Source: Blastocladiella britannica (lineage: Eukaryota > Blastocladiomycota > Blastocladiomycetes > Blastocladiales > Blastocladiaceae). Taken from it: a DNA stretch of 39,692 nt. Positions 5,495 through 34,179 of the stretch are shown one piece after another. The notes beneath the pieces are model-generated. The model saw only the letters and a program-made list of their open reading frames with translations, was not told the DNA's origin and did no database searches. Made by a program: the position numbers and the translations under genes. The stretch is taken from NCBI GenBank assembly GCA_025349905.2, contig MU624623.1, positions 1 through 39,692 on the forward strand, given 5' to 3'. Each line of letters opens with the position of its first letter. Positions within the stretch are counted from its first letter, which is position 1.

Positions 5495-7396
5495 ATGCAA
5501 CCATCACCATTACCACTGGCCATTGTCGGCACGCGCGTGCACCTGGCAGGAGGAGTGCCGCCGACCGAGATATTCTCGGATGCATCTGGTCACCGTAACC
5601 ACCCGCGGTCCCCTCACGACTTGGTCACGGGCATGGGCCTTAATGGACAGCAAGAACCATATCCTCTGGTCGTCGAGTGCCTGTGGGCGTCTGGGCATGC
5701 GCCGCGCCCACCGCCGCCACTACTCACAGACTGCATTGTACTGTCCCCAACTCCACACACGATGACGGCCGAGCTAGTGTCCCACGCGTCCCTCTATGTG
5801 GTCCTCGCGCCGCTGGACTGGGCACGAAGGCACGCGGTCCCCGTGGTGGTGGGCGGCGTGACCGCTGTATTGTCTGCCCCGCCGAGTACGGTTCTTGCGG
5901 AGTGGCCCTGGGGCGCCGATTCCATTCACGCGGTGCCACGGCACGCTGCCACGTTTTACACGCGCGCAAGGTCGATTGCCAAGCACCCGACCTGCGCGTT
6001 CTTGGTCCCTGGTGCCAGCGAGCCATGCGAGTCGCTCCCACGGTCGCTACTGCGGGTGTCGCTGGCGTATGCTATTGCTGGGAATCTCGACGCGCCGCCC
6101 GCGCTGGCGGTCCGCGGCCTGTTTCGCTTTTCGACGCGACTTGCTACTCCATTCGATGATAGTGCTGCCGGAATTCCCGTGCAGTCGCCTCCTTTGCCAC
6201 ATCATGGAGACAATGAGGATGCGTCCTCGTTGAATAGCCAGCAGCAACCGGGACGACGACGATCAGTCCGCATTATGGTGCTCCCCGACGTGGAGGTGTG
6301 GCAGCCCGAATCGGGGCGGCTGGGCCTGGCCGACTTTTCAGTTGCGGTGGAAGATGATGGCGGCCCGTCCGCATGCGCATGGACGGCCATGATGCGCTCT
6401 CGAGCAATGAGTGCTGCTGGAGTCGCCGGAATGCCCGCTCCCGGATACGTGGTCCATGTGCCCGACGCTTTCTTATCCAGCGCGATGTATTCTTCCTCGT
6501 CTTCGTCCCTCTCAGCAACAGTAACAACAGCTTGGGACTCAAAGCAGCCGCTTTTTGGCGCGCAATGGGATGCTTCGACCCATACGTTCGACGGCAACTT
6601 GGCCTACTTTGACCCGGGCTGCTTGAGCATACACGCCAACGGCGAGAGCATTGTCCTGTCGGTCGCCCCGACCACCTCCCAAAAAAAGCCGTACGCGGCT
6701 GCCGAGCTGCGCACACACGCATTACTCCCACCGCGCTCGGTCCCGACAGCGCACCGCACGCTATTCTGGAGCGCGGCGACACTGAAGGCGTCCAATGTGT
6801 CCGGGATCGTGTCGGCGTTCTTTCTGTACCGCGACCCATCGCCGATCGAGGAGATTGACGTGGTGGAAGTCACGGGCAACATGCCGCGGTCGGTGCAGCT
6901 CAACTATTTTGCCGCCAATGTCGGGACCGCGGCGCCGGCAGCCCACGGGTTCCCGCAGCGCGTGCAGTGCGGGTGGGACGCGTCGGTAGATGCGCACACG
7001 TACGCGACGGCGTTGCGGCCCGGGCGCGCGATTGTGTGGTGCATTGACGGCCGGCCCGTGGCCAGGGCCAAGGGACGGCAAGCGCAGGTGCCCGAGCACC
7101 CGACCAGGGCCATGACGAGCGTGTGGCCGAGCGGGAGTGGGGTCGGGTGGGCGGGTGCCGTAGATGCGGATGCGATCGCGCGCGGTAAGGCGTGGGTTCA
7201 GCTTGATCTGGTCGAGGTGTGGGAGGAGGAGGTAGGGAAGGGTGATCGATCCCGATCGCCTTTTTCCTCTGTGAGCAGCACGAGTCCGAGTCCAAGGAGT
7301 GGATCTACTGGAGGAAAGGGAGCGCGCAGCCGCATGAAACGTGCCTTGGGGCGGCCATTCCAGGCACTGGCCGCACGCTGGCGGCGAGAAGAGTAG
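5495..7396 (+). CDS. GH16-type glucanase/transglycosylase-like protein with a novel N-terminal region
   Basis: Single exon of 633 aa, starting 44 bp after the PPR stop. Residues about 350-600 resemble the GH16 fold of fungal Crh cell-wall transglycosylases. The catalytic signature E-I-D-V-V-E (residues 453-458) is present, followed by a QLNYFAAN strand, a HTYATALRPGRAIVWCIDG segment typical of the concave-face strands, and a MTSVWPSG strand. GH16 Crh enzymes cut and transfer beta-glucan or chitin chains in the wall. Residues 1-340 match nothing I recognise. No signal peptide is visible at the N terminus, and no upstream exon is possible because the PPR gene ends there. The C terminus is Ser-rich, then basic (GRPFQALAARWRREE). 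Secretion by a non-classical route, or loss of wall function, are both open. Confidence 0.7.
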   Translation: MQPSPLPLAIVGTRVHLAGGVPPTEIFSDASGHRNHPRSPHDLVTGMGLNGQQEPYPLVVECLWASGHAPRPPPPLLTDCIVLSPTPHTMTAELVSHASLYVVLAPLDWARRHAVPVVVGGVTAVLSAPPSTVLAEWPWGADSIHAVPRHAATFYTRARSIAKHPTCAFLVPGASEPCESLPRSLLRVSLAYAIAGNLDAPPALAVRGLFRFSTRLATPFDDSAAGIPVQSPPLPHHGDNEDASSLNSQQQPGRRRSVRIMVLPDVEVWQPESGRLGLADFSVAVEDDGGPSACAWTAMMRSRAMSAAGVAGMPAPGYVVHVPDAFLSSAMYSSSSSSLSATVTTAWDSKQPLFGAQWDASTHTFDGNLAYFDPGCLSIHANGESIVLSVAPTTSQKKPYAAAELRTHALLPPRSVPTAHRTLFWSAATLKASNVSGIVSAFFLYRDPSPIEEIDVVEVTGNMPRSVQLNYFAANVGTAAPAAHGFPQRVQCGWDASVDAHTYATALRPGRAIVWCIDGRPVARAKGRQAQVPEHPTRAMTSVWPSGSGVGWAGAVDADAIARGKAWVQLDLVEVWEEEVGKGDRSRSPFSSVSSTSPSPRSGSTGGKGARSRMKRALGRPFQALAARWRREE

Positions 7397-9281: not shown

Positions 9282-12200
9282 ATGTTCACGGTCCTCCGCC
9301 GGCTCTTCCTGCCCGCGGTCTCGCTGGTCCTGGGCTGCGTCCTCTTGTTTGTGGCCTTTGTGCTGTACCCGGTCTTTCTGTGCGCCTCCGACACGTTCAC
9401 GTCCAAGCAAATCCAGCGCCATGGCTACGTGGCCTTCCACGGCCTGGTCGCCGACCTGTCGCAGGCCACCACCAATCGCACCGCCTACATCCACTCCCAA
9501 TTCGCTGGCATGGACATTTCGTCGCTGGTCCCGCGCATGCTGTGGCTCGCACGCACCCCGGACGGGTCTTACGCCGACAAGGACATTCGCCAGTGCGTCA
9601 ATGACCCGGTGGTGGCCGACGCCTGGCTGAAACTGGCCCTGGCCGACGCCAACGGCACCACGCTGGCATTTCAATCCCCGCAGCCGCAACAATCCGGTAC
9701 CAGCGGCACATTCACCACGCTGTCCAAGTGCGCGCGCCCCCGCCCGCTCGCCGTAACCGTCCTGGATACCCGGCGTCGCGCCAACTTGCTGATGCTCGCG
9801 CACCAGCTGTGGGGCTTGGGAGAGCTTAGCCCGGTGCCGGATGAAGGCGCCATTGACGCACAAATCACCGCCACCGAGCGGTCCGACCTGCCCAAGCCGC
9901 AGCCGCCGCCCGTGGATCTGTCGGTGAACTGTTTGGTGGAGCCCGACGCGCTGCGGGACTTGTTCCACAACGTGGTGGGCCATGTACGCATCGACTTTGA
10001 CGCACTGGGTCTCGACAACGATAAAGTGCAACAGCAGCGCGAAGCCGCGATCGCCAGAGCGGTACCCTCGTCCCCGGCCAAGGACGACCTGCGCGGCGGA
10101 TTCGTCAACATGACGGACCCCGTCCCCGGGTTTGGTGGGCTGGTGGCCATCAACGACATGGTGTTTGATGTCGCGCAGTACCTAGCACACGCCACCACGT
10201 ACCTGTCTAGCAACGCCGCGTCGCCTTCGACTCGCTCGTCCGAGTACGCTGTCCCGCGCGAGGGCGATACCATGTTCTTGTCCCGCAGTGTCACCGAATT
10301 GCTCTCGCACGCGCACGGCCGCATGCCGTTGCCGGGCGGCGACCGCGATCTGGGTTGGCAGCGTTTAATTAGATCGGACACGGACGCGAAAGGGATCACG
10401 GCTCGGAGTTGCTTGGTCAAGCTGTTTTACATTGGGTATGTCTTTTTTTTTCTTTTCAATGGGAGCTCACCCCTGCAAAAATATAAATTAGAAAACTCTC
10501 GACCACGTTCTGCCACTCGTGCTTTGCTCGCAACTGGCTGCTGGCGGCCACTGCGATTCTCACGGCCCTGATTGCGTTTGTCGAAACCTTGGTCGCGTTT
10601 GCCGCGATCCACCCGCGAGTCCTGAGCCCCGTGCGCACCCTCAGTGCGATGCTGCGTCGTGGGGCCGCGCCCAAGGACGCTGACAAGAACACGCGGTCGC
10701 TGCAGTCGCGCGGGCACGTGCTGTTTGTGGTGCCCGTATTTGCAGAGCCCACTGCGGTGGTATGCCGGGCCCTGGCCAGCGTGGTGCGGTCGCACGTCAC
10801 CAATAAAGTACTGGTGGTGGTGTGCGACGGCAACGTGCGGCCCAAGGGCGACGTCAAGGACACGTGGCGCGCGGTGCTCGAGCAGCTGCGGTACCGCGCG
10901 CCGGCCACGTCGGCGGCAGCGGCGGCGGCGGCGGCGCCGGGCGCTGGAGACGCGGGCGTGCCGCTGCGGTACGGGTCGCTGGGCCAGTCGCGCAAGCGCA
11001 CCAACTTGGCCCGGATCTACTCGGGGTTCTGCACGGCCGAGGACGGCGCAAGCGTGCCGTACATTGTGGTGGTCAAGATCGGCCACCCGTGGGAGCGCAG
11101 CGCCAGTGCGCCGGGTAACCGCGGGAAACGCGACTCGACGCACTTGGTGGCGCGGTACCTGCACAATGTACTGACGTACCCGGGTCTGAACCCGCGCACG
11201 GTGCTGTCGCCGCTGGAAGCAGCGATTCACGACGCACTGACCGGCGCCAATGTCGACCCGCGCCGCATCGAGTTTTTGGTCAATGTTGACGGCGACACGA
11301 GCATTGCCCGCCGCGCACCTGGTGTTCTGCTGGATATTCTCAACACGAACCGCGACGTGGCCGCCGCTAGCGGGTCCATGACCATCACCAACTCGTTTGC
11401 GTCCCCGTGGGCTCCCGTCGCGGCTCTGCGGTCGGCGATCGACCAGCACGCGCGCCCGGCGTCGCAACAGACGTTCTCGCGGCTCGCCATCATCAACACC
11501 GCGTTCGCGGCGTACCGCGTCCAGAACCCGGTACCCGCACCCGCCGATCTCGACCCCATGAGCGGTGTCACTGCTTTGGCCCACGACCCGATCCCGCCGC
11601 CGTCGCCCGACCTCCGTAATTGGGGTGCCAATGGAACCGGGTCCATCAACTCGAGCAACGCGGCGCCGGCTCCGCGGTCGCCCGCGGACCTAGTCCTGTC
11701 GCACCCGGCGGTGCTGCGGCGCATGTCGGCCCCCGAGCTAGCGTCGGCGTTCGAGCAAAACCTGTTTTTGCTTGGGGACGACCGGCACATTGCCACCACG
11801 CTGGCTCTGGTGCACCCGCACACGCGTGCCGTCTACGAGCCGCGCGCACGCGCATATACCACTGTCCCAACGGGCCTTACCGGTGTGGTCATGTCCATGG
11901 TCAAGGACTGGGCTGCCAACTTGTTTGTGGCCCTCGACCAGGTGTTTGCGCCGATCGGCCAGGTCCGTGTCGCTGGTCCTCCTGCAGGCGCGACTGCGGT
12001 CGTGTCGCCATCCGGGCGTCTGGGAGAAAAGACCGAAAAGCCTGCCACCGGCAGCCTGGACCGTGCGTCGATTGGTAGCTCGGCGGCGAGTGCTACCGGT
12101 ACCCGAGGCGACAATGTGCGTGCACCGCCGTCATTCCTGGCGCGCATGAGCACCGCGCTCGGCCGCGGCATGGCCCGGCTGTACTCGGTGGCGCAGGTGA

Positions 12201-13537
12201 TGATTGCACTGACGCTGCCGTTCATGGCGCTGGCCATGGTCGCGGTCGTGTACCAGGCGGTGTTTCTGCGGCAACCGGCGTCCATGGTCTCGCTGGCATC
12301 GTGGGTGCTGGTGGCGCTCGTGCACTGCTTGCTGCTCGCGATCTCACGGCACCACGCGCGCATTCTCGAGCTGCTGGCCGTTGCGCTGTACGGATGGGTG
12401 CTGCTGTGGGTAGTGGTACCCGTGATTGGGCTGGCCGTGGTCACGCGCGCGCGGTGGGTCGACCAGTGGCAGGCCGAGGGCGCACCCTGGATCAGGGTTC
12501 CCGGAGCGATCGCCGACCCAGTCGCCGAGCGCGAGGCCGACGCAATGCTGGCGGCGGTCGCGGGGCCTAATGGGTCGTTTGGGTCACTGGGCAGCGGCGG
12601 GAGTGGGTCGTTGGTCCGCAAGGGCGGCATGGTCTCGGCGCCCTCGGCGGCCGTCACGCGCATATCAGCGGGCGGTAACAATGGTGGCAGTTTGCCGCGG
12701 CCCGGCTCGGGATCGGCGATGGTGGCCGCGGCGGCCATTTCGCGGCCGCGCGCGCCCAGTCTGCGGCTGAACGTCACGGTGCCATCGTCGTCGTCCCCCG
12801 CGTACCATCACCGGCGCAGGTCGCCGTCGCCCAACAACGTGACCAGCCCCAACCGAAGCAGTCCCGGGACCACTCCACCGCCGCCGCTGGTCACGCCGGG
12901 CGGGCACGTGTTGTCGCCGATCTTTGGCAGCAGCGATATTGTGTCTGCTGCAGGGTGCGGGAGCGACGCATCGGCCACGCCGTCCATCATTGGTAGCCCA
13001 GTGATTTCGGCGCTGTCGCCGCTGGACGTGGCCAGCGCCGCTGCATCCCGACTCCGCGACCAGCAGCATGGATCCTCGTCGTCGCCGCACCAGGCGTACT
13101 CACCCGGTCTGCCGCTATCACCGGCGGCCCTGATTCCGAGTCCGTACAGCACCGATCTGCAACAACAGGGGCTGCCGTCGTCGCCATTCTCGCCCATGCG
13201 TTTGCAGTCATCGACTGCTGCTGCTGCTGCGGTAGTGGTGCTGGAGGACGAGTCGCCCGAGAAATTGCTGGGGATGCGTGCGTCGGCGTTCCGCACCCGT
13301 GCCGCCCAGGCGCTGGCACGCGAGCTGGCACGCACGCCGCTGGCGATGGTGTCTCTGCCGCTGGCACCGGAACAAGTGCAGGACCTGGCAGACCGCGTCA
13401 CGGAGCGGCTGGTGACGGAGCTGCGGTCCGACAAAGTGGCGTTGCTGGATCACTTGGTGCTGGCCGAAGTGCAGGCGCACCTGGACGGGCTCTGGCGCGA
13501 GCGGTCCGCGATGGCGGCCAGTGCCAGTGCCGTGTAG
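9282..13537 (+). CDS. Divergent chitin synthase-like glycosyltransferase (GT2)
   Basis: Two exons, 9282-10435 and 10492-13537, with a 56-nt intron, give 1399 aa. An N-terminal membrane segment (about residues 9-33) is followed by a roughly 350-aa non-cytosolic region with NRT and NGT sequons. A second hydrophobic stretch follows the splice site. The catalytic core then shows VVPVFAEP, YIVVVKIGHPWER, GNRGKRDS (593-600), the metal-binding DGD (651-653) and GDDR (813-816) where chitin synthases have GEDR. Three membrane helices (about 952-978, 986-1003 and 1011-1040) and an R-W-V-D-Q-W segment follow, as in class IV/V-type enzymes. The C-terminal 350 residues are Ser/Pro-rich with a helical end. 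The expected QRRRW motif reads MVKDW (854-858), keeping only Trp. It may be an altered or inactive chitin synthase relative. Confidence 0.85.
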
Positions 13538-18001: not shown

Positions 18002-18072
18002 CAATCTCGTCGGGATTCGAACCCGAGTTTCTCGCACGGCAGAAGAGTGTCGTACCACTGGACCACGAGGTA
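18002..18072 (-). tRNA. tRNA-Gly(GCC)-like sequence, probably degenerate
   Basis: The minus strand reads as a 71-nt tRNA closest to tRNA-Gly with anticodon GCC in the loop CTGCCGT. The T arm is perfect (TCGGG / CCCGA around TTCGAAT). A good A box (TGGTCCAGTGG) and B box (GGTTCGAATCC) are present, and a run of eight T downstream could terminate Pol III. Against function: the acceptor stem has two mismatches (positions 1-72 and 3-70) and the anticodon stem one (30-40). It could be a weak tRNA gene, a tRNA pseudogene, or the head of a tRNA-derived SINE. Confidence 0.5.
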
Positions 18073-25736: not shown

Positions 25737-25850
25737 CATCAGCAAACAGGAAAACCGGGTTTGGGAGCCCTGAAACAAGAATAACGACTCCCAAACTGAA
25801 TAACGGCCCTCTTTGCCTAATAAGGCTTTTCTCCTAATCAGGCACTAATC
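25737..25850 (+). repeat. Left terminal/subterminal repeat cluster
   Basis: Contains CATCAGCAAAC (25737-25747), CTAATAAGGCT (25817-25827) and the overlapping CTAATCAGG / CAGGCACTAATC block (25834-25850). Each has a partner at the right end of the proposed element, some inverted and some direct. Confidence 0.5.
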
Positions 25851-26393
25851 TGGTCCGTCACGACGCTGTAAAAACCACAATGTTTTAGTGCAAGTCGATT
25901 GGCCATACCGCATGCTGCAACCTATCCTTCAGGTCCCGCGCTGCAAATGTCCCCCATCGTCGTGGGGTGGGCAATGTTTCCGACTTGAATGCGTAACGCC
26001 GCTGGCCGGTCTTCTCGGCTTCCCGCGCCTTAAGAATATATTATATAGTATTACTAGGGTATTTCCCCTGTATATATGGCAAAATACTGCGTATCCCGCG
26101 ATATTTTTTTTTTCCTGGCGATTCAAGTCTCCAGCGTGCTGTAATGAATGCGCTCCGCCGCAAGCTCCGGTCCGGCCGCTCACACGTTGTCTAGCTGTTA
26201 GTACCATAATATACCCGTCCATTTTTATGTAAATTGTTTGTTTTTGTCCGTGGTCGCAGTGGCGATCGGTTGCTCTATTCCGTACCAGCGTTTTTCTTCA
26301 GCACATGTTCGAGATCGCGGTCCCCCTGGCTGTCGCCGGTATGCGATTCTTCTTATTTCGGTGGTATGAGCGATCGCACGAGCATTAATCCGT
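25851..26393. other. Non-coding left part of the element
   Basis: About 540 bp between the left repeats and the transposase stop. It is AT-rich, with no conserved coding sequence or RNA seen. Confidence 0.5.
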
Positions 26394-27554
26394 TTATTTC
26401 AACATGGCAGTGATCTTTTCATCCTCCAGCAACTGAAAGGTGTGCTGCTCAGCGTAGTGGTTGAGCACATAGACGCTAGGACCAAAACCCGTCCGTGCCC
26501 GCTTCGCCGTTGGCTCACCATCCGCGTCCCGCTCGATATGCACAACATGCGCGGCAGACACAATTGCACTGGCTGGGAGCAACAAGAACTGCCGTGGGGC
26601 CAATGCCGCCAACTGGATCATGCCGCCAAGCGACTCGTCGCACCGCCGCGCCATCTTCTCGATATACACAAAGTCGCGCACGTCACCTGATGGCAGGACG
26701 CATCGAGCGCAAATGAGCAGCCGGCCCACATACAGGGTCTCATTCTGCCCGTCGCCTTGGAGAAAGAGCAGGCCGCCCATCCGCGTCGCGTTCGCCGCCG
26801 TCTTGCTTGCGCCATACTCTGCCGCCACGTACTGGTGCACCGGGTCCAGCGCATACGGCGAATTGATGGTCAACAGGAAGCGGCGGAAGTAGTGGACTTT
26901 GGCGTCCTCGTCCGCAACCTCAGCCATGAGCAGCTGGTGGAACACTGGGTCAAACGATGCGGTCGCGTTGATCGTCTGGATATTGGCATTGCCTGTCCAG
27001 AGCTTGTGCGACAGCTTGTAACCCGTCACGTTGCGCTTGTCGCCGGTCGCAAGCCCGGTTTGGTCGCGCATGAGCTCCTCTACGTTGGAAAATCGAGCGA
27101 GGGTATCCTCGTCGAAAACCTCGTGCTCATTGCCATCCTTGTCGGTGTACGTGGGCTCGAACCGTGCCACCACGTCGCGGAGATGGTCCGACAGCGTGTT
27201 CCGCATCGACTGCCACGCGAGCATGTCACGCTGGTACTTGTTGGCGGAGAAATTGGTGCGCTGGGAGGCTGGCTTGACCGACACCGAGTGCTCGTGCTCA
27301 CCGCGCTGGGTCGACTGTGTCGAAAGCGGCCCGAACCGACGAACAAGTGTCGTATAATGCGACAACATGTGGAATTTGAGCGGGTACGAGTCGTCCAGTT
27401 TCAGCGATTCAGCGACTTGGACAAACACTGCCATAAATGTCGCCAAGGCCTCGTCCGCCTTGTCCAAATGCTCGTCCGTTGGAAGACGCACTGACACGAG
27501 CTTGTAAAATCGCGTGTAGGCAACCATCATCTCCAAGACCGGAATCATGACCTG
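26394..27554 (-). CDS. Plavaka-like transposase, C-terminal part (after frameshift)
   Basis: This open frame of about 385 residues continues the transposase core after a one-base shift in the A10 run at 27565-27574. It opens with MIPVLEMMVAYTRF and then DSYPLKFHMLSHYTTLVRRF, followed by GPLSTQSTQRGEHEHSVSVK. Plavaka and related transposases have a helix-rich segment with a conserved Glu/Arg and His motif in this position. The remainder (SANKYQRDMLAWQSMRN, then a beta-rich C-terminal region) fits the accessory end of the family. Without a frameshift or slippage this part would be translated only by internal initiation, so the element is either disabled or uses slippage. The stop at 26394 is about 540 bp from the left repeats. 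Confidence 0.75.
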   Translation of the reverse strand, partial: QVMIPVLEMMVAYTRFYKLVSVRLPTDEHLDKADEALATFMAVFVQVAESLKLDDSYPLKFHMLSHYTTLVRRFGPLSTQSTQRGEHEHSVSVKPASQRTNFSANKYQRDMLAWQSMRNTLSDHLRDVVARFEPTYTDKDGNEHEVFDEDTLARFSNVEELMRDQTGLATGDKRNVTGYKLSHKLWTGNANIQTINATASFDPVFHQLLMAEVADEDAKVHYFRRFLLTINSPYALDPVHQYVAAEYGASKTAANATRMGGLLFLQGDGQNETLYVGRLLICARCVLPSGDVRDFVYIEKMARRCDESLGGMIQLAALAPRQFLLLPASAIVSAAHVVHIERDADGEPTAKRARTGFGPSVYVLNHYAEQHTFQLLEDEKITAMLK

Positions 27555-29272
27555 GTTGTTGCTCTTTTTTTTTTCGGCCGCGTGTTTTGGCTTTCGGCTG
27601 GTCCTTCTTGTCCTCGTCGTTTGCCGCCGCTTCTACCTCACCATTTTCATCGGCGATGGCGACGACCGCCGTCACCATGGCGTTGAAGAGGCCGGCCACC
27701 TCGTACGCCTTCATCTTCGCGCCCTCGGACTTGAACGGCGATGAATTGCGGTTTGGCCAGGCATGGTACGGTTGAACCTTCTCACCCGTAAGCGAGAGAA
27801 ACCGCTCTTGGGTCGCCTTGCTCACCGCCAGATACCAGACTTTGCAGACGGCGTCCGTGACACCCAAATGCACTTGGTGGAGGTCACCGGCGGCGATGCA
27901 CTCGTGCACATTGCGGACGAGCTTGTAAAACGCGTTTTCCGAGTCGTACCGCCCCAGCTGCTCTTGTTCCTCGGGTTTGGTGGGTTCGTGCATGTGGACC
28001 CGAGTCACGGCACCTTTGTGCACCGAAAGCTCGCCGGAGATCACCTTTTCAAGAGGCAGCTCGCAAATTGCACATGGGCACTTCCCACGGCACCCGCGCG
28101 TGTTGGTGTACATGGCGGCCTCGGGCAGATCGCACGACGCATACAGAATATCGGGGAACAGCAGCAGCTTGCGACCGTTGAGCTCGACAAGGATGCCATT
28201 GATGCGCGCTGCTTGCCACGACGCGCCAAAGAGCACCGCCAGGCACGCGTGAAATACGCCACGCTGGCACGTTGAATGCAAGGCAGTCGGAAACTTCGAT
28301 TTTTTGAGGTCGTTCTTGGACACGATGGGAAAGTACCCGGCAGGCGTGAACAGGCGGTGCTGTGCCTTGGCGACAAGGTGCGCAGGCAAGTTTGCCAGCC
28401 CGATCATGACAGGGTGCGCCGATTTCTTGTTGGACACATCCGTCTTGTCCGAGTACATGGTGATCGGCACGTAAACCACCTCGTACTCTTTGTGTTCGGG
28501 CCTGACAAAACGGCAGACCCTCTCACCACGCCACTTGAGTTGTTTGCCTTTCTTACGACACATTGCCGATTTTTCCTGATCGATTTCCAGCAACCTGCGC
28601 CCTTCTTCGACGCCGACGCTGGACATGGCGTCAACATACGCGCGCGCGCCGTCCGCCGTCGTGGCCCGGCGCGGTTTCTCGATGAGGCACGCGGAAATGA
28701 CCGGATTCGTGATCCACGCCTTGATGACGTCGACCGGGTGGCAATAATAGAATGTTTGCGTGACCAGCTCCAGCGTCTCGGTCCGCGGCGGGGCCATCGA
28801 CCTACCCCTCGGGCGTACTTGGCGCTGGAGCGAAAAATCGATGGGGGATGATTGGACTGGATGCATTGACGGCAATTTCTGGGCGAGCGTGCGTGCTTGG
28901 TCGAAGTTCTTGATACCAATCGGGATGCAGGTACAACGCGCCTTGTACTTGTCCTTGATGCGCTTGTTGATAGTTGAGATGGGATCGAAATCATTGACCC
29001 CGTCCTCTGTGATCTCCAGCGAGCAAATATCCGGAAACGGCGCAATCGCTCGGCGGAGCGCCTCGCCCCCGCTAGGCTGCTTCGTCGGTGGCACGAGCCA
29101 GACTCTTGATGGCTCAACTTGGATACGGTGGGAATCCAGCACCGAGTGGAATCGTGACGACTGGCTGTGGGCGTCAGTCGTCATTACTTCCGTGTCCTCG
29201 AAACGCTCGTCGTGCAGGCCGTCGCTGTCGAACTTGTCGCAGCCGGTTTCATCGCCATCGCCATCGCCATCG

Positions 29273-29308
<36 letters not shown>

Positions 29309-29831
29309 TCATCGTTGCCGACATAAGAATTGAGATCGTTGTTGGTCTCGCCGTCGACCTCACCCTTGTCGTCGGTGTCTGCAGCGGACTCCTCTTCAAG
29401 ATCGTGTCCAATACAAGCGTGCAGGTATACGCTCGACTGCGGGGCGCGAGCTCAATTCCGGCAACTGCGACTTCGACCTCCGCGGCGCGATTCCCTTGCG
29501 TACTGGCGTGGGGTTCAGGATCGATGATTTCCAGCACATGCGTCAGCTCTGATCAATGTGGAACGTGTCAGCAAGGGCAGCTTCGTTTAAGGTATGTGAG
29601 TTCTTTTGTATATATACCAGGGTCCGACTCAACAACTGACAGAACCGGGACACGATTGCTTCGAGTGGCGCAAGGTTTTGAGGACGGCAATGCTGCCCCA
29701 GGCAAAGTTGTTCGGTTGCGTTCAGAGCAACCTTTGTGCACCATGCCGATGTGCGTCTTCAGTCCATTGGGGCCGAATGACTTTTCGCAATAGGTGCACT
29801 TGGCCTTTCTCGCCAGGTCTCCCTTGGTCAC
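27409..29831 (-). CDS. Plavaka-like transposase, N-terminal and catalytic part
   Basis: Exon 1 (29831-29618, 5' end uncertain, no ATG in frame) encodes a C2H2 zinc finger: CTYCEKSFGPNGLKTHIGMVH has the C-x2-C...H-x4-H spacing. A 69-nt intron (29549-29617) leads to a short exon from 29548. A further small intron or shift near 29440-29490 leads into an acidic Asp/Gly run and then the main frame (MTTDAHSQSS at 29184). The core carries landmarks of fungal Plavaka transposases: VVYVPITMYSDKTDVSNKK, AHPVMIGLANLPAH, RGVFHACLAVLFGAS, DLPEAAMYTN, a CPCAIC cluster and VRNVHECIAAGDLHQ. The family cuts and pastes DNA with a DDE-type catalytic domain. True homology to the next part is lost at the A10 run at 27565-27574; codons from there to 27409 are out of frame. 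Confidence 0.8.
29250..29313 (-). repeat. Asp/Gly-coding microsatellite in the transposase
   Basis: Plus-strand ATCGCC repeats run into a GTC trinucleotide run. On the minus strand this encodes a run of Asp followed by Gly-Asp pairs in the acidic linker between the zinc finger and the transposase core. It is likely length-variable. Confidence 0.8.
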
Positions 29832-30088
29832 TCACGTGAGTGCACCCGATCAGCCAACCACCGCAACACCATTACCGCCCATTTCTCTCCTCGTCCAACC
29901 TCCCGGCTCACAGCAGCATCACCTACACCATCAACTGCCCACCATCCGCTGGCACCAACAAAGACAAAAATGGTACGCTGTCACCCACTTTTTTCGTTCG
30001 TCTCCGTTTTCTTCGTCCTTCCTTGTGCTCACCGTGCCCCATTGTAAACGTTCGCTTTGTTTATCCCCCTTGTCGTCTCTACACACCA

Positions 30089-32347
30089 ATGACAATGACC
30101 ATCGATTCCGCCTTGGCCACGACACCAAACAAGGCCACCACCGGCAAGAAGAAGACCAACGCCAAGAGCACGACCACCGGCGGCAAGAAGAAGACCACGG
30201 CTGGCAAGAAGAAGACCATGCCCGCTCCTGCTCCCACACCGGACAAGCCTGCTACCAAAAAGCGTGCTCGAGCTGCCCCCACTAGTGGCGAGACCTTGGC
30301 CGCGGACACTGATGATGGAGGTAGTAACGTCGATACCACCCCTTTGGGCAAGGAAAGTGCCCCGACATCCAAGCACCCTCGCCTCTCGAAGAAGGCCACT
30401 GCCGCCGCTGCTGCCGCCGCCGCTGATGCTGCTGCCGCTGAGGCTGCCGCCGTCGCCACTAAAGAGCCGCGCGGCTTCATCTCTGGTGTGTCTCGTTTTC
30501 ATTTCCTTTATTTGTCCTCTCGAAGCTCACTACCTGCTCCTCACTTCAAATGTCAGGTGTGCACACATGCAAGCATTGTGGAAACAATACTTCACCCATA
30601 TTCATTTGCCAGCCACTTGACCGCAACTGCAGCAATAAGCTGTGCAGCGAGTGCATTGGCCCGAACGCCGAGTACTGCCGTGGCTGTGATAAGGACAAGT
30701 TTACCGACGCACCCGCAATGGGCAATTCCAGCCCCTGCAGTTCGTGCGGCGCGCTTGCGGTCCTTGAGCGCTGCGACAACTTTGCGGACAGCTGTAGTGC
30801 AATGTTGTGCTCCGGGTGCATTGCGGGATCCGCCTGCAAGAAGTGCGCTGATGCACCAGATGACGAGGGTGAAGAGGAGGAGACGCCTGCACCTGTAGGC
30901 ATCAAATGCGACATGACGCTCGCATGCAAGCCGATTCCGGCCCTGTCTGGAGACGCCGTTGGCAACGAGGAGAGCACGCTGGAAGGAGTATGTCATGGCC
31001 CTCATTGTTTTCGGCATCTTTCACGGTCTCATTACCCTGAATTAACAGCTTCGCGCGTCCACTGTTCTCCGCGCTGTCTTTCTTTTTGTTGGAGGCTGGT
31101 GGTGGTGCCCTGGCATGTTGAATCTCGAAGGCTCAGCGCTTGAGTGGGATAAGCACCTCGTCTGCCAATTTGAGGCAATCATGAACAAGTCGTTCCCCCC
31201 AAAATTTGTACGTTATTATACTCCTTCCTTGGCAAACTGATCCCGCACAATTTGGCGCTATTTCTGTCAGTACTCTGACCAAATTTCTAGCCTCCGCACC
31301 GAAATGAAGAAGCGTGCTGGCGACGTGTTCAAAGATCTCGTCCGGTCTGGCGAGTTGAGTAACGAGAAATTCATCAAGGCACGTGCAGGTCACCCCGAGG
31401 TGGTGGCCAAGATCACAAAGTTGTACCCGCGATTCAAGCAAACGCCCTTGTGGGCGTTCAGCCTGCCACTGAACCAGATCAGCTTGATTGTCTCGGAATA
31501 TTCCGCATACTTTGCCTGGCCACGCAAGTTTGCTGGAGATCGAGTGATCGTGAATGGTGCGCACCCTCGAATCAGGATGTTTGCACAGCAGATGATTCGG
31601 GGTACAGCAGCTACGACGCGTATGTATTTTATTGCATTTTATTCTGCTCAACTCACCATTTTTTTTCACAGGAATGACGATGATGGGCGCCGCATTTGCG
31701 TCTTGGGCAAAGGGAAAGGGTTCAGCCGACAAGGGGGTGGGCTCCAGTCGCCGCCAATGCCATGCCGACGACCCTTGACTCTCAATACTTGGCGAACGTG
31801 ATCGCGTCAATGTTATGCTTTGTACGACCACCAATTTTTATTCAATGCATCTGCAGTGGGCTCACAATCATTAATGGGACAGTTCCATCTCGGAAACATG
31901 GGCAAGCTTGATGACGACACGAAAGGCCGCATCCAAGATGTTTTCTTGCAGGTCACCCACGGGTTGCGGGCCTATCCGCCCCACGTGCAGCGGTACCTCT
32001 GGAAACTGTGGCACCCAGTAATTTTTGGCGGGTCTACGCGTGCTCCGGCTCAGGCTCCTCGTACCGAAAGGATCGACGAAGCCGCCTGGGACCAAATGGA
32101 AGCGACCAACGCAGCTGCCGATTTTTCTGGGGCAGAATCGTCGGACGATCACGACGAGCATGATGCCGGCGACGATCACGACGAGCCTGGCGCTGACGGC
32201 AACCGCGACGAGCATGGCGCTGGCGACGAGGAAGAGGGCGACGAGGAAGAGGGCGACGAGGAAGAGGGCGGCGAGGAGGAGGGCGACGAGGCCAGTGGGA
32301 GCGAGAGCAGTGGGGTCAGCGATTGTGACTGGAATATAGATTATTGA
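30089..32347 (+). CDS. Element-encoded protein: Lys/Ala-rich head, duplicated 8-Cys zinc-like module, acidic tail
   Basis: Six exons (30089-30485, 30557-30987, 31049-31207, 31271-31619, 31748-31821, 31883-32347) join in frame to 624 aa. The fifth acceptor (31747) is chosen because the nearer CACAG at 31671 leads to an early stop. Residues 1-130 are basic with GKKKT repeats and an Ala run. Residues 137-176 and 193-229 are two copies of a module: C-x2-C-x8/9-C-x6-C-x4-C-x2-C-x5/7-C-x2-C, the spacing of a cross-brace zinc fold (RING/ZZ-like) but not one I can name. A helical middle (MKKRAGDVFKDLVRSGEL) follows, then a tail rich in Asp/Glu/Gly tandem units. It is divergent from the transposase inside the same repeats, so it may be an accessory transposition protein, like the second protein of CACTA elements, or cargo. 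Function is not known. Confidence 0.65.
30149..30220 (+). repeat. GKKKT-coding tandem repeat
   Basis: Three imperfect copies of GGCAAGAAGAAGACC encode Gly-Lys-Lys-Lys-Thr in the basic head of the element-borne protein, possibly a nuclear-localisation or DNA-contact segment. Confidence 0.7.
32223..32290 (+). repeat. Acidic-coding 15-nt tandem repeat
   Basis: Four to five copies of GACGAGGAAGAGGGC (last ones varied) encode the Asp-Glu-Glu-Glu-Gly units near the C terminus of the element-borne protein. Confidence 0.85.
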
Positions 32348-32424
32348 TCTGACTATACAATGATTATGCGGTATTGTGGTATTATGGAAGCAGGGCAGGA
32401 TTAGGGTATACCCAGCGGAATAGG

Positions 32425-32574
32425 GCCTGATTATGGACGGGAGCCTTATTAGCCAAACTGACATGAATAGGTTGGTTGTCCTGATCAGGAAAAAGGGTTG
32501 GGGGTTGCAAGTCGTTGCTGATCAGGTAAAATCGCTAATCAGGTACTGTTCAGGCACTAATCCGTTTGCTGATG
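32425..32574 (-). repeat. Right terminal/subterminal repeat cluster
   Basis: Holds the inverted partners of the left cluster (GCCTGATTA 32425-32433, AGCCTTATTAG 32442-32452, GTTTGCTGATG 32564-32574) and direct copies CTAATCAGG (32535-32543) and CAGGCACTAATC (32551-32562). A CTGATCAGG-type motif also recurs between them. Confidence 0.5.
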
Positions 32575-32592: not shown

Positions 32593-33916
32593 TTAGTGAG
32601 GAGGAGTGTACAGTCGGAGTCCCAGGACACTGCGCACGTCCTCGGCAAACCGCAGGGCGTCCAGGAAGGGGAGCAGCTCCAGCAGTGCCTCGTCGTTGCT
32701 GTCCGACACCCATCCTTCGATTGGAATGCCATTTGCTAAGTATTTTTAAATCAGTCCATGCTCACAAATTAAAATAATGAAGAAAGGTACCTTGGTTGAT
32801 GGCAAAAGAAATCGGGGAATTGTCAAGCAGGCAGACTTGCGACAAGTCTGCGTCGATCACGCGAAGGTCCTTGAGGTATGTCGTTCCATGCTGGATGCAC
32901 GACTACATCACAGAAAAAAAAATCATGTCAGAAACCAAAGCTCAAAAAAAAAAAATAATAATAATGATAAATAAACGAACCTGACGGAAATACCGGCCTC
33001 GCACAAGCCGCTTCCCTCCCTCCAGCCAATCAATCACCGGATCCGCATACTCTTGCAAACTGGCGGTGAAAATCACCACTTTATACCACTCGGCGACTTT
33101 GCGCAGAAAGAAGTCTACGTGCGGCCGCTTGTACACGTAGTACATGCACTTGTGGCCGTCGATCGACACCTCAATCAGGTGGTCGGACCGGCGCGTCGGT
33201 AATCCGCGCGACGTGCTGTGGATCAGCGTCTCGTCCAGGTCCAGCACCAGGGTCTTGCGCCGGAGCGCCGGGTGGTGGCTGCGTGCGGTTGGGTTGCGGG
33301 CAATCGAGCCCGACGTGGATGGGGGGATACCGATCCGTCGGCGGGCGCGCACGGTCGTCGTTGTGGTTGATGGGCTCGGAGGATTGGAAGACGACAAGAG
33401 ACTATCGGCATCGACCCGCGACTGCTGCTGTCGTCGTCGCGGCGGCGGCGATTGGGATGAAGGTATTGGTGACACTCCTTCTCCCCCTTCTGCAGCAGTG
33501 GCACCGTCGTCAGCTGCCATTGATCCGTGTGGTGACAAAAGGGACCGACGCCTGGGCGTAGTCCCCTGCAGTCGCGGCGAGCGTGGTGGTGGCGAAGTGG
33601 ATGATGACAGCAAAGACACAGAAGGAGCAGCAGTAGATGACCGGTAGAGGCGGCGGCGGTCAGCGGCAATAGTCGAGTCCAGTCCCGGCAAATGGGCGGC
33701 CAAGAATGGAGGCAGCCACGGCAGCACAAACGAAGCGAGCCACGAGACCAAAGCCAGCACCAGAGCCGTGAACGAGGGCATGCTTTGCGCAGCTTTTGCA
33801 GTTGTTGTCTTCCTTAAGGGCGAAGAGGAAGAGGTGGTGAACGAAATACCAAAGAAGGCCGACAGGATCAGTTGCAAGGGCGACGACGATGTTGGGCGAC
33901 GCGTCGGCGGACCCAT
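32593..33916 (-). CDS. NEM1: NEM1/CTDNEP1-type protein phosphatase (FCP1/NIF domain)
   Basis: Three exons (33916-32981, 32902-32791, 32735-32593) give 396 aa. The start is the ATG at 33916; the frame is open further up but without an ATG. A hydrophobic segment (about residues 48-75, with [18 protein letters not shown]) anchors it in the ER/nuclear membrane, followed by a 140-residue Ser/Pro/Arg-rich linker. The catalytic domain starts with the HAD signature DLDET (Asp226, Asp228, Thr230) in [12 protein letters not shown], then [39 protein letters not shown] and [20 protein letters not shown]. These are typical of Nem1/CTDNEP1. With Spo7 this phosphatase activates the phosphatidate phosphatase Pah1 (lipin), controlling lipid synthesis and nuclear membrane growth. 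The 3' side abuts the proposed transposon end. Confidence 0.93.
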
Positions 33917-34179
33917 TCGTCGTTTTTTTTCGTTTTGATTGTATTTCTTGTCAGAGCTCTGTCCTCTGTCCGTGCGCACGCTCTCTCGCTCGTGTGTGTT
34001 CTACAATGAAGTGCGTGGTGGTTATGGTCTGGTATACTCCCTTGGAAGAGCGACGCCGCCGCCTCAAAAAAGCGAGTATGCGATGATGTCAGGGTATGCG
34101 TGGCGCTGAAAGAAAATCCCAAATGTGAAATGCCTTTCCTCTTTTCCCATCAAGTGCGGCCCCATTCTAAAAAGAAACA

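What the first reader, a model, noticed from the sequence alone, without database searches (positions are those of the whole stretch)
25737..32574. A two-gene, repeat-bounded Plavaka-like element in an early-diverging fungus
Seen: a transposase with Plavaka landmarks and a divergent six-exon gene sit between AT-rich edges that share short inverted and direct repeats. Known: fungal Plavaka belongs to the CMC group, where CACTA-type members encode a second, repeat-binding protein. Inferred: the plus-strand gene is the functional counterpart of that second protein, or a cargo gene, giving an element architecture that may not have been described.
Basis: partly seen in the sequence, partly recalled or inferred. 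Interest (0 to 1): 0.75.

Follow-up and report, generated by a model that had tools for sequence, protein, structure and literature searches.

The report
Two-gene Plavaka transposon in Blastocladiella
A jumping gene in an early-diverging aquatic fungus carries, besides its cutting enzyme, a second and fast-changing gene of unknown type that travels with it, an arrangement that may be a new version of a helper-protein system known from plant transposons.

Summary
The window is a Blastocladiella britannica contig, and 25737-32574 is a Plavaka DNA transposon: exact 11-bp inverted repeats fitting published PlavakaB termini, a PF18759 transposase (minus strand), and a six-exon "gene 2" (plus strand). 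Both genes change frame in this copy. Other copies in the genome show that the two genes belong together. Of 8 contigs with transposase sequence, 4 (C84, C275, C177, C195) have gene 2 head-to-head beside it; 2 end before they could show it; 2 are short 3' remnants in which none was found. C177's transposase is only 38-45% identical; C195 keeps just the outer part of each gene. Three elements have their own short repeats outside both genes. Gene 2 diverges far more than the transposase, and two capped protein searches found no relative outside this species. Most likely gene 2 is an integral second protein that binds the subterminal repeats, a functional counterpart (homology not shown) of TNPA of En/Spm. 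That it is integral is well supported; the binding role is inferred. Not shown: a target-site duplication, DNA binding, expression, or occurrence in other fungi.

The parts
25737..32574 (.). whole element, CATCA..TGATG termini, 6838 bp
   Evidence: Exact 11-bp inverted repeats; termini as published for PlavakaB (PMC12730594); left end also recognisable in C275 and right end in C211.
25737..25747 (+). left terminal inverted repeat CATCAGCAAAC
   Evidence: C275 left end reads CTTCAGCAAAC.
32564..32574 (-). right terminal inverted repeat
   Evidence: C211 right end, 206 of 233 aligned bases identical over 32341-32574.
25817..25842 (.). left subterminal repeats (2 sites, CTAATAAGG and CTAATCAGG)
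32444..32543 (.). right subterminal repeats (4 distinct sites)
   Evidence: none of the motif between 25871 and 32399.
26394..27590 (-). transposase, C-terminal frame (holds HMLSH and the RGEHEHS region)
   Evidence: Open frame; C275 copy 94% and 82% identical in two pieces; motif positions.
27412..29448 (-). transposase, core frame (YSDKTD 28438-28455, CPCAIC 28063-28080)
   Evidence: PF18759 E 2.1e-22; C275 copy 86% identical over 414 aa; NCBI BC828DRAFT_376688.
27565..27574 (.). T-run at which the transposase changes frame in this copy; the C275 copy is open here
   Evidence: NCBI's model bridges the place with a predicted intron.
29568..29831 (-). probable upstream transposase exon with a C2H2-like zinc finger
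   Evidence: zf-C2H2_4 E 0.0024, below its curated cut-off; counterpart in C275, 28% over 54 aa, E 3e-6. How it is joined to the core was not worked out.
30089..30485 (+). gene 2 exon 1 (basic, Lys/Ala-rich)
   Evidence: Exon model with GT..AG introns; not covered by the NCBI proteins.
30557..30987 (+). gene 2 exon 2 (two Cys-rich repeats)
   Evidence: second repeat also in C275; NCBI BC828DRAFT_376694 begins inside this exon.
31049..31207 (+). gene 2 exon 3 (LFVGGWWW)
   Evidence: C275 44% over 52 aa; C177 LLVGADWW.
31271..31619 (+). gene 2 exon 4
   Evidence: C177 IIAGHHPVLRQIAEHVLGG against IVNGAHPRIRMFAQQMIRG. NCBI uses a later acceptor.
31672..31821 (+). gene 2 exon 5, with a frame change inside it in this copy
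   Evidence: Two overlapping frames; NCBI splits the gene here; likeness to other copies on both sides (profile E only 0.15).
31883..32347 (+). gene 2 exon 6 (YLWKLWHPVIFG, acidic tail)
   Evidence: Found by a profile built without the window, E 8.5e-8, next segment 0.12; junction as in BC828DRAFT_287064.

Best explanation
The feature is a two-gene cut-and-paste transposon of the Plavaka group (PlavakaB-like ends), about 6.8 kb long, in Blastocladiella britannica. The minus-strand gene is the transposase, probably with an N-terminal zinc finger. The plus-strand gene, which points away from it across a shared central region, is an integral second element gene and not passing host DNA. The most likely mechanism is that the transposase acts at the short CATCA ends, while the second protein (basic N-terminus, Cys-rich, possibly zinc-binding repeats, acidic tail) binds the element-specific subterminal repeats and helps bring the ends together or regulates transcription, as TNPA does beside TNPD in En/Spm. 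Shown here: the anatomy, the repeated head-to-head association, the element-specific subterminal repeats, and more synonymous than nonsynonymous change in the transposase and, over 52 codons, in gene 2. Inferred: the binding role. I put about 0.9 on gene 2 being integral and about 0.5 on it also being a TNPA-like binder; the figure given is for both together.
For: Termini and domain. Association: transposase-like sequence lies on 8 contigs (C84, C275, C177, C195, C12, C53, C150, C371); gene 2 lies head-to-head beside it on 4 of 8 (C84; C275; C177; C195). C177's transposase is only 38-45% identical to the window's, so the pairing is old. C195 keeps the last transposase exon and the last gene 2 exons, as an internally deleted derivative would. 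Independence from the window: a profile of exon 6 from C177, C195 and C223 finds window exon 6 at E 8.5e-8 among 2236 segments. Repeats outside both genes: C177 has TTCTAAATCAGA-like units x5 right of gene 2 and a like motif x2 left of the transposase, likeness of the two sides judged by eye; C195 has CCCTCAACAGAA left and its exact inverse right; the window has its own set. Rates: the C84/C275 transposase core is 86% identical, dN/dS 0.20; gene 2 is 34-44% identical, exon 3 dN/dS 0.23 on 52 codons with dS near saturation. AT-hook-like motif in C177's gene 2, 15.8 bits, under the 17.4-bit cut-off. TNPA precedent: PMC2613891, passages.
Against: No Pfam family matches the gene 2 pieces that were scanned from the window (one chance-level row at E 4.8), and no DNA-binding fold was shown. 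The transposase's own finger could do the end recognition. No gene 2 was found on 2 of 8 contigs, both short 3' remnants (C150, C371). C160 has a gene 2 piece on the same strand as a short stretch shared with C12 beside its transposase, so it is rearranged. C275's gene 2 lacks roughly its first 180-190 residues. No 2-3 bp duplication flanks the window copy. Both genes change frame in the window copy, which may be dead or mis-sequenced there. Synonymous divergence also rises towards gene 2 (0.38 core, 0.91 N-terminus, about 2.3 in exon 3), so part of the contrast may be module exchange or gene conversion rather than fast protein evolution.
Confidence: 0.5

Rival explanations
1. Gene 2 is integral but is cargo or an anti-silencing/regulatory protein (as the TET/JBP dioxygenases carried by some Plavaka), not a repeat-binding partner of transposition.
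For: Some PlavakaB families carry an extra gene, TET/JBP (PMC12730594, passages and one section). Gene 2 has a long acidic tail and Cys-rich repeats that could serve regulation.
Against: No Pfam match to TET/JBP or to an enzyme in the pieces scanned. Kept beside transposases only 38-45% identical, longer than a recent capture would be.
Confidence: 0.3
2. Gene 2 belongs to a different mobile element or to the host, and happens to lie beside the Plavaka transposase (nested or neighbouring insertion).
For: Gene 2 pieces without a recognised transposase in the stretch fetched: C3 (E 1.1e-4 over 67 aa; 28 aa), and C211 and C223, whose contigs end inside it.
Against: Head-to-head pairing on 4 of 8 transposase contigs with diverged sequences; element repeats lie outside both genes in three elements; the C195 deletion derivative.
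Confidence: 0.05
3. The element is an ordinary degraded Plavaka whose plus-strand gene is a gene-prediction artefact.
For: Both genes change frame in the window copy; gene 2 exon 1 is low-complexity.
Against: Exons 3-6 have homologues in other copies in the same order; dN/dS 0.23 in exon 3; NCBI predicted proteins there independently.
Confidence: 0.05

Closest known systems
PlavakaB DNA transposons of Agaricomycotina (PMC12730594, 2025)
   Same: PF18759-type transposase; 5'-CATCA..TGATG-3' termini; C(2)C and H(3)H motifs present by eye (CAIC, HMLSH).
   Different: Host is Blastocladiomycota; second gene is not recognisable as TET/JBP; no duplication found at this copy; place in the transposase tree not tested.
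En/Spm (CACTA) with TNPD and TNPA (passages of PMC2613891)
   Same: Transposase plus a second protein; short subterminal repeats that differ between related elements; second protein diverges much more than the transposase.
   Different: Termini are CATCA, not CACTA; the second protein comes from a separate divergent gene (that tnpA and tnpD are alternative transcripts of one unit is recalled); no shown homology or DNA binding.
Harbinger/Nuwa two-gene elements (mentioned in a passage of PMC12730594)
   Same: Transposase and a separate second protein encoded by one element.
   Different: Their second protein has a Myb/SANT domain and they are Harbinger relatives; gene 2 has no Pfam match.
TET/JBP-carrying Plavaka (PMC12730594)
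   Same: A Plavaka with an extra gene.
   Different: Gene 2 pieces have no match to a dioxygenase family.

Membership tests
Plavaka (PlavakaB) | transposase with the Plavaka domain PF18759 | tested here: met
   E 2.1e-22, 80.2 bits, cut-off 26.3
Plavaka (PlavakaB) | termini 5'-CATCA..TGATG-3' | tested here: met
   25737-25747 and 32564-32574 exact; published termini in PMC12730594
[quoted passage not shown]
   CAIC within CPCAIC and HMLSH are present in that order, on either side of the frame change; picked by eye, and the catalytic D, D and E were not assigned by alignment
Plavaka (PlavakaB) | 2 or 3 bp target-site duplication | tested here: inconclusive
   Not present at the only copy with both ends (AGT/TCA); a CAAG repeat lies one base outside each end. 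One copy with broken frames cannot decide; the ends of C195 are uncertain
Plavaka (PlavakaB) | position in the transposase tree | not tested
   Published Plavaka sequences are in supplements that were not readable here
CACTA (En/Spm) | CACTA/CACTG termini | tested here: not met
   Termini are CATCA
CACTA (En/Spm) | second protein that binds subterminal repeats | not testable with these tools
   Repeats are present; binding needs an experiment
TET/JBP-carrying Plavaka | TET/JBP dioxygenase gene in the element | tested here: not met
   No such Pfam match of gene 2 pieces at E up to 10
DUF6532 (PF20149) proteins of basidiomycetes (resemblance recalled) | match to the PF20149 profile | tested here: inconclusive
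   No match in this genome, but no control genome rang either; no Pfam match of the spliced pieces

The most novel reading that the evidence does not exclude
Plavaka elements of Blastocladiomycota evolved, or kept from the CMC ancestor, a two-protein system in which a conserved transposase cuts at conserved ends while a fast-changing, exchangeable second protein reads element-specific subterminal repeats: an analogue of TNPD/TNPA built from an orphan protein family, with the second gene and the repeats swapped as a module between related elements.
Probability: 0.35. Interest if true: 0.65.

Novelty: new variant of a known kind. Interest (0 to 1): 0.5.

Why it matters
In the papers seen here Plavaka is described by its transposase and, in some mushrooms, a captured TET/JBP gene. 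A second gene that accompanies transposases only about 40% identical, in an early-diverging fungal phylum, suggests that a two-protein architecture is older or more frequent in the CMC group than the plant CACTA elements show. It gives a testable case of how a conserved transposase and a fast-evolving end-reading protein divide the work.

Tried and rejected
(1) Host-gene reading of gene 2: disfavoured, since its relatives in the genome are diverged and 4 of the 8 contigs with a gene 2 match that I kept (C84, C275, C177, C195 against C211, C223, C160, C3) have a transposase head-to-head beside it; none was found outside this species. (2) C325 match to gene 2 residues 38-174 (E 0.0014): dropped as low-complexity plus a GATA-like finger (my reading); gene 2 exon 2 has no Pfam match, GATA included. 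(3) Ala-rich DNA matches to about window 30387-30457 on 10 other contigs: dropped as low-complexity. (4) Match of exon 4 to the solved Euglena complex I subunit NDUEG3 (E 5e-4): two 10-bit stretches around a GD.V.VNGAH pattern, taken as chance. Exon 2 and the transposase had no convincing solved relative (best E 0.68 and 0.071). (5) DUF6532 resemblance, recalled from memory: no match, controls silent. (6) Target-site duplication: none of 2-3 bp at the window; a CAAG pair one base outside the ends, and an AGA pair one base outside candidate C195 ends, are both within reach of chance. (7) More copies by end sequence: one (C211) for the right end, none for the left. (8) Structure prediction: two jobs failed, a third was not accepted; not tried again. 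(9) Weak PF18759 match at C26:320 (E 0.014, under cut-off): not counted as a transposase contig. C160 is not counted among the 8 either: only short stretches shared with C12 and C195. (10) My first model of exons 5-6 (31672-31746, 31857-32347) was replaced after comparison with other copies and the NCBI protein.
Full report
What it is. The window is a 39,692-bp contig of a 15.26-Mb, 624-contig genome. A protein search returned its transposase as NCBI hypothetical protein BC828DRAFT_376688 of Blastocladiella britannica on a contig of that length; the species belongs to Blastocladiomycota. The transposase is Plavaka by Pfam (PF18759, E 2.1e-22).

Ends. The 11-bp sequence CATCAGCAAAC at 25737-25747 recurs inverted at 32564-32574. 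PMC12730594 (2025; author Kojima, name recalled; passages and section 3.2.2 seen) gives 5'-CATCA..TGATG-3' termini and 2 or 3 bp duplications for PlavakaB, and C(2)C and H(3-4)H motifs for Plavaka transposases; the window has CAIC and HMLSH, with the catalytic residues not assigned. The left end of the C275 copy reads CTTCAGCAAAC. The right end of C211 is 206 of 233 aligned bases identical and ends TGATG. The window copy has no 2-3 bp duplication. Its right end lies 18 bp past a stop codon on the minus strand that probably ends the neighbouring NIF-type phosphatase gene.

Genes. The transposase reads on the minus strand in two overlapping frames that meet at a T-run near 27565-27574. The C275 copy is open there but changes frame elsewhere. 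Gene 2 reads on the plus strand in six exons. NCBI annotates it as two proteins, split at a frame change inside exon 5, and its second protein places the last intron at 31822-31882; its first protein starts exon 4 later than my model, and neither covers exon 1. Whether the frame changes are mutations or sequence errors was not decidable here.

Do the genes travel together? Transposase-like sequence was found on 8 contigs. C84 (window): both genes. C275: transposase 86% identical over 414 aa and, on the other strand, gene 2 residues 181-328 at 34-44%; roughly the first 180-190 residues are missing, and the contig then ends. C177: transposase 38-45% identical and head-to-head a gene with the same order of landmarks, LLVGADWW, IIAGHHPVLRQIAEHVLGG, FLWREWYPVLFG. 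C195: last transposase exon and, head-to-head, the last gene 2 exons, which looks like an internally deleted copy. C12 and C53: contig ends 0.43 and 0.64 kb past the transposase match. C150 and C371: short 3' tails of the transposase. No gene 2 was found in the 4.35 kb of C150 and 2.1 kb of C371 that were fetched (for C371 only profiles of exons 5 and 6 and DNA comparison were run), and the C371 protein match itself is weak (E 0.04). Gene 2 also occurs at C223 and C211, where contigs end inside it (C211 by its end sequence and my reading of a short acidic tail), and at C160 on the same strand as a short stretch shared with C12 just beyond its transposase match. C3 is a possible further case (E 1.1e-4; 28 aa, E 0.003; profile E 0.7). 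A profile of exon 6 made without the window found window exon 6 at E 8.5e-8 of 2236 segments, the next at 0.12. A profile of exon 5 put the window's exon 5 first among non-members, but only at E 0.15.

Repeats. The window's motif CT(A/G)AT(A/C/T)AG(G/C) has 2 distinct sites at the left end, 4 at the right and none between; shuffles reached the counts in 0 of 5000 trials at each end, but the motif was chosen after seeing the ends. The C177 element has TTCTAAATCAGA-like units, 5 right of gene 2 and 2 left of the transposase (likeness of the two sides by eye). C195 has CCCTCAACAGAA left and its exact inverse right. So three elements have different repeat sequences placed outside both genes.

Divergence. 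Between C84 and C275, dS is 0.24-0.45 over the transposase core and C-terminus, 0.91 at its N-terminus and about 2.3 (near saturation, 52 codons) in gene 2 exon 3; dN/dS is 0.11-0.32 over the five stretches measured. The left 134 bp have 75 of 113 aligned bases identical, against 76-84% in the next three 200-bp bins; in 300 shuffles of the C275 stretch the mean was 22 matches and the largest 71, so beyond the terminal 11 bases this alignment is weak. The rise in synonymous divergence suggests exchange of gene 2, or gene conversion of the transposase, besides fast protein change.

How it probably works. In En/Spm, passages of PMC2613891 state that TNPD is the putative transposase, that TNPA recognises the subterminal repeats, that both are required, and that repeats and binding proteins diversify while transposases stay conserved. 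The anatomy here fits that pattern: short conserved ends, element-specific subterminal repeats, conserved transposase, strongly diverged second gene with a basic N-terminus, Cys-rich repeats and, in C177, an AT-hook-like motif below Pfam's cut-off (E 0.012, 15.8 of 17.4 bits). Binding is inferred. Cargo or anti-silencing is the main rival.

Novelty. Open-access searches for Plavaka with transposon, TIR/TSD, Blastocladi-, and Kyakuja/fungi/open reading frame gave no description of such a second gene that I saw. In the papers of which passages were seen (PMC12730594, PMC8290104, PMC9674265, PMC11244446, PMC11075540; [quoted passage not shown] The other papers were seen as listings only. Iyer et al. 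2014, recalled as the paper that named Plavaka, is not held, and supplements were not readable. Two searches of 5.8 billion proteins with gene 2 found nothing (single sequence, 4938 candidates scored) and three proteins, all of this species (5-row alignment, the 7994 candidates sharing most words scored). The method needs shared 5-residue words and is capped, so distant relatives could be missed.

Noticed in passing
window 32593-33979 (minus): NIF-type phosphatase gene (PF03031, E 1.6e-25, on the ORF 32942-33979); the transposon ends 18 bp past a stop codon that probably ends its last exon.
   Followed up: partly
window 10589-13537 (+) and 5495-7396 (+): Chitin synthase (PF03142) and a glycosyl hydrolase 16 (PF00722) gene close together, probably cell-wall genes of the fungus.
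   Followed up: no
window 18002-18072 (minus): tRNA gene, the only Rfam match at gathering threshold in the window.
   Followed up: no
L026 7325-7359 (C275): The transposase zinc-finger stretch and the second Cys repeat of gene 2 are only about 35 bp apart, against about 900 bp in the window: an internal loss of gene 2's 5' part, or a gain in the window copy.
   Followed up: partly
C275, C211, C12, C53, C223 contig ends: At least five of the transposase- or gene 2-bearing contigs end inside or within about 1 kb of the element, so assembly breaks may hide complete copies.
   Followed up: no
L042 4894-5292 (C325, minus): Gene with a GATA-like finger (my reading) that weakly resembles the first Cys repeat of gene 2; may hint at the fold of that repeat, no Pfam support.
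   Followed up: partly
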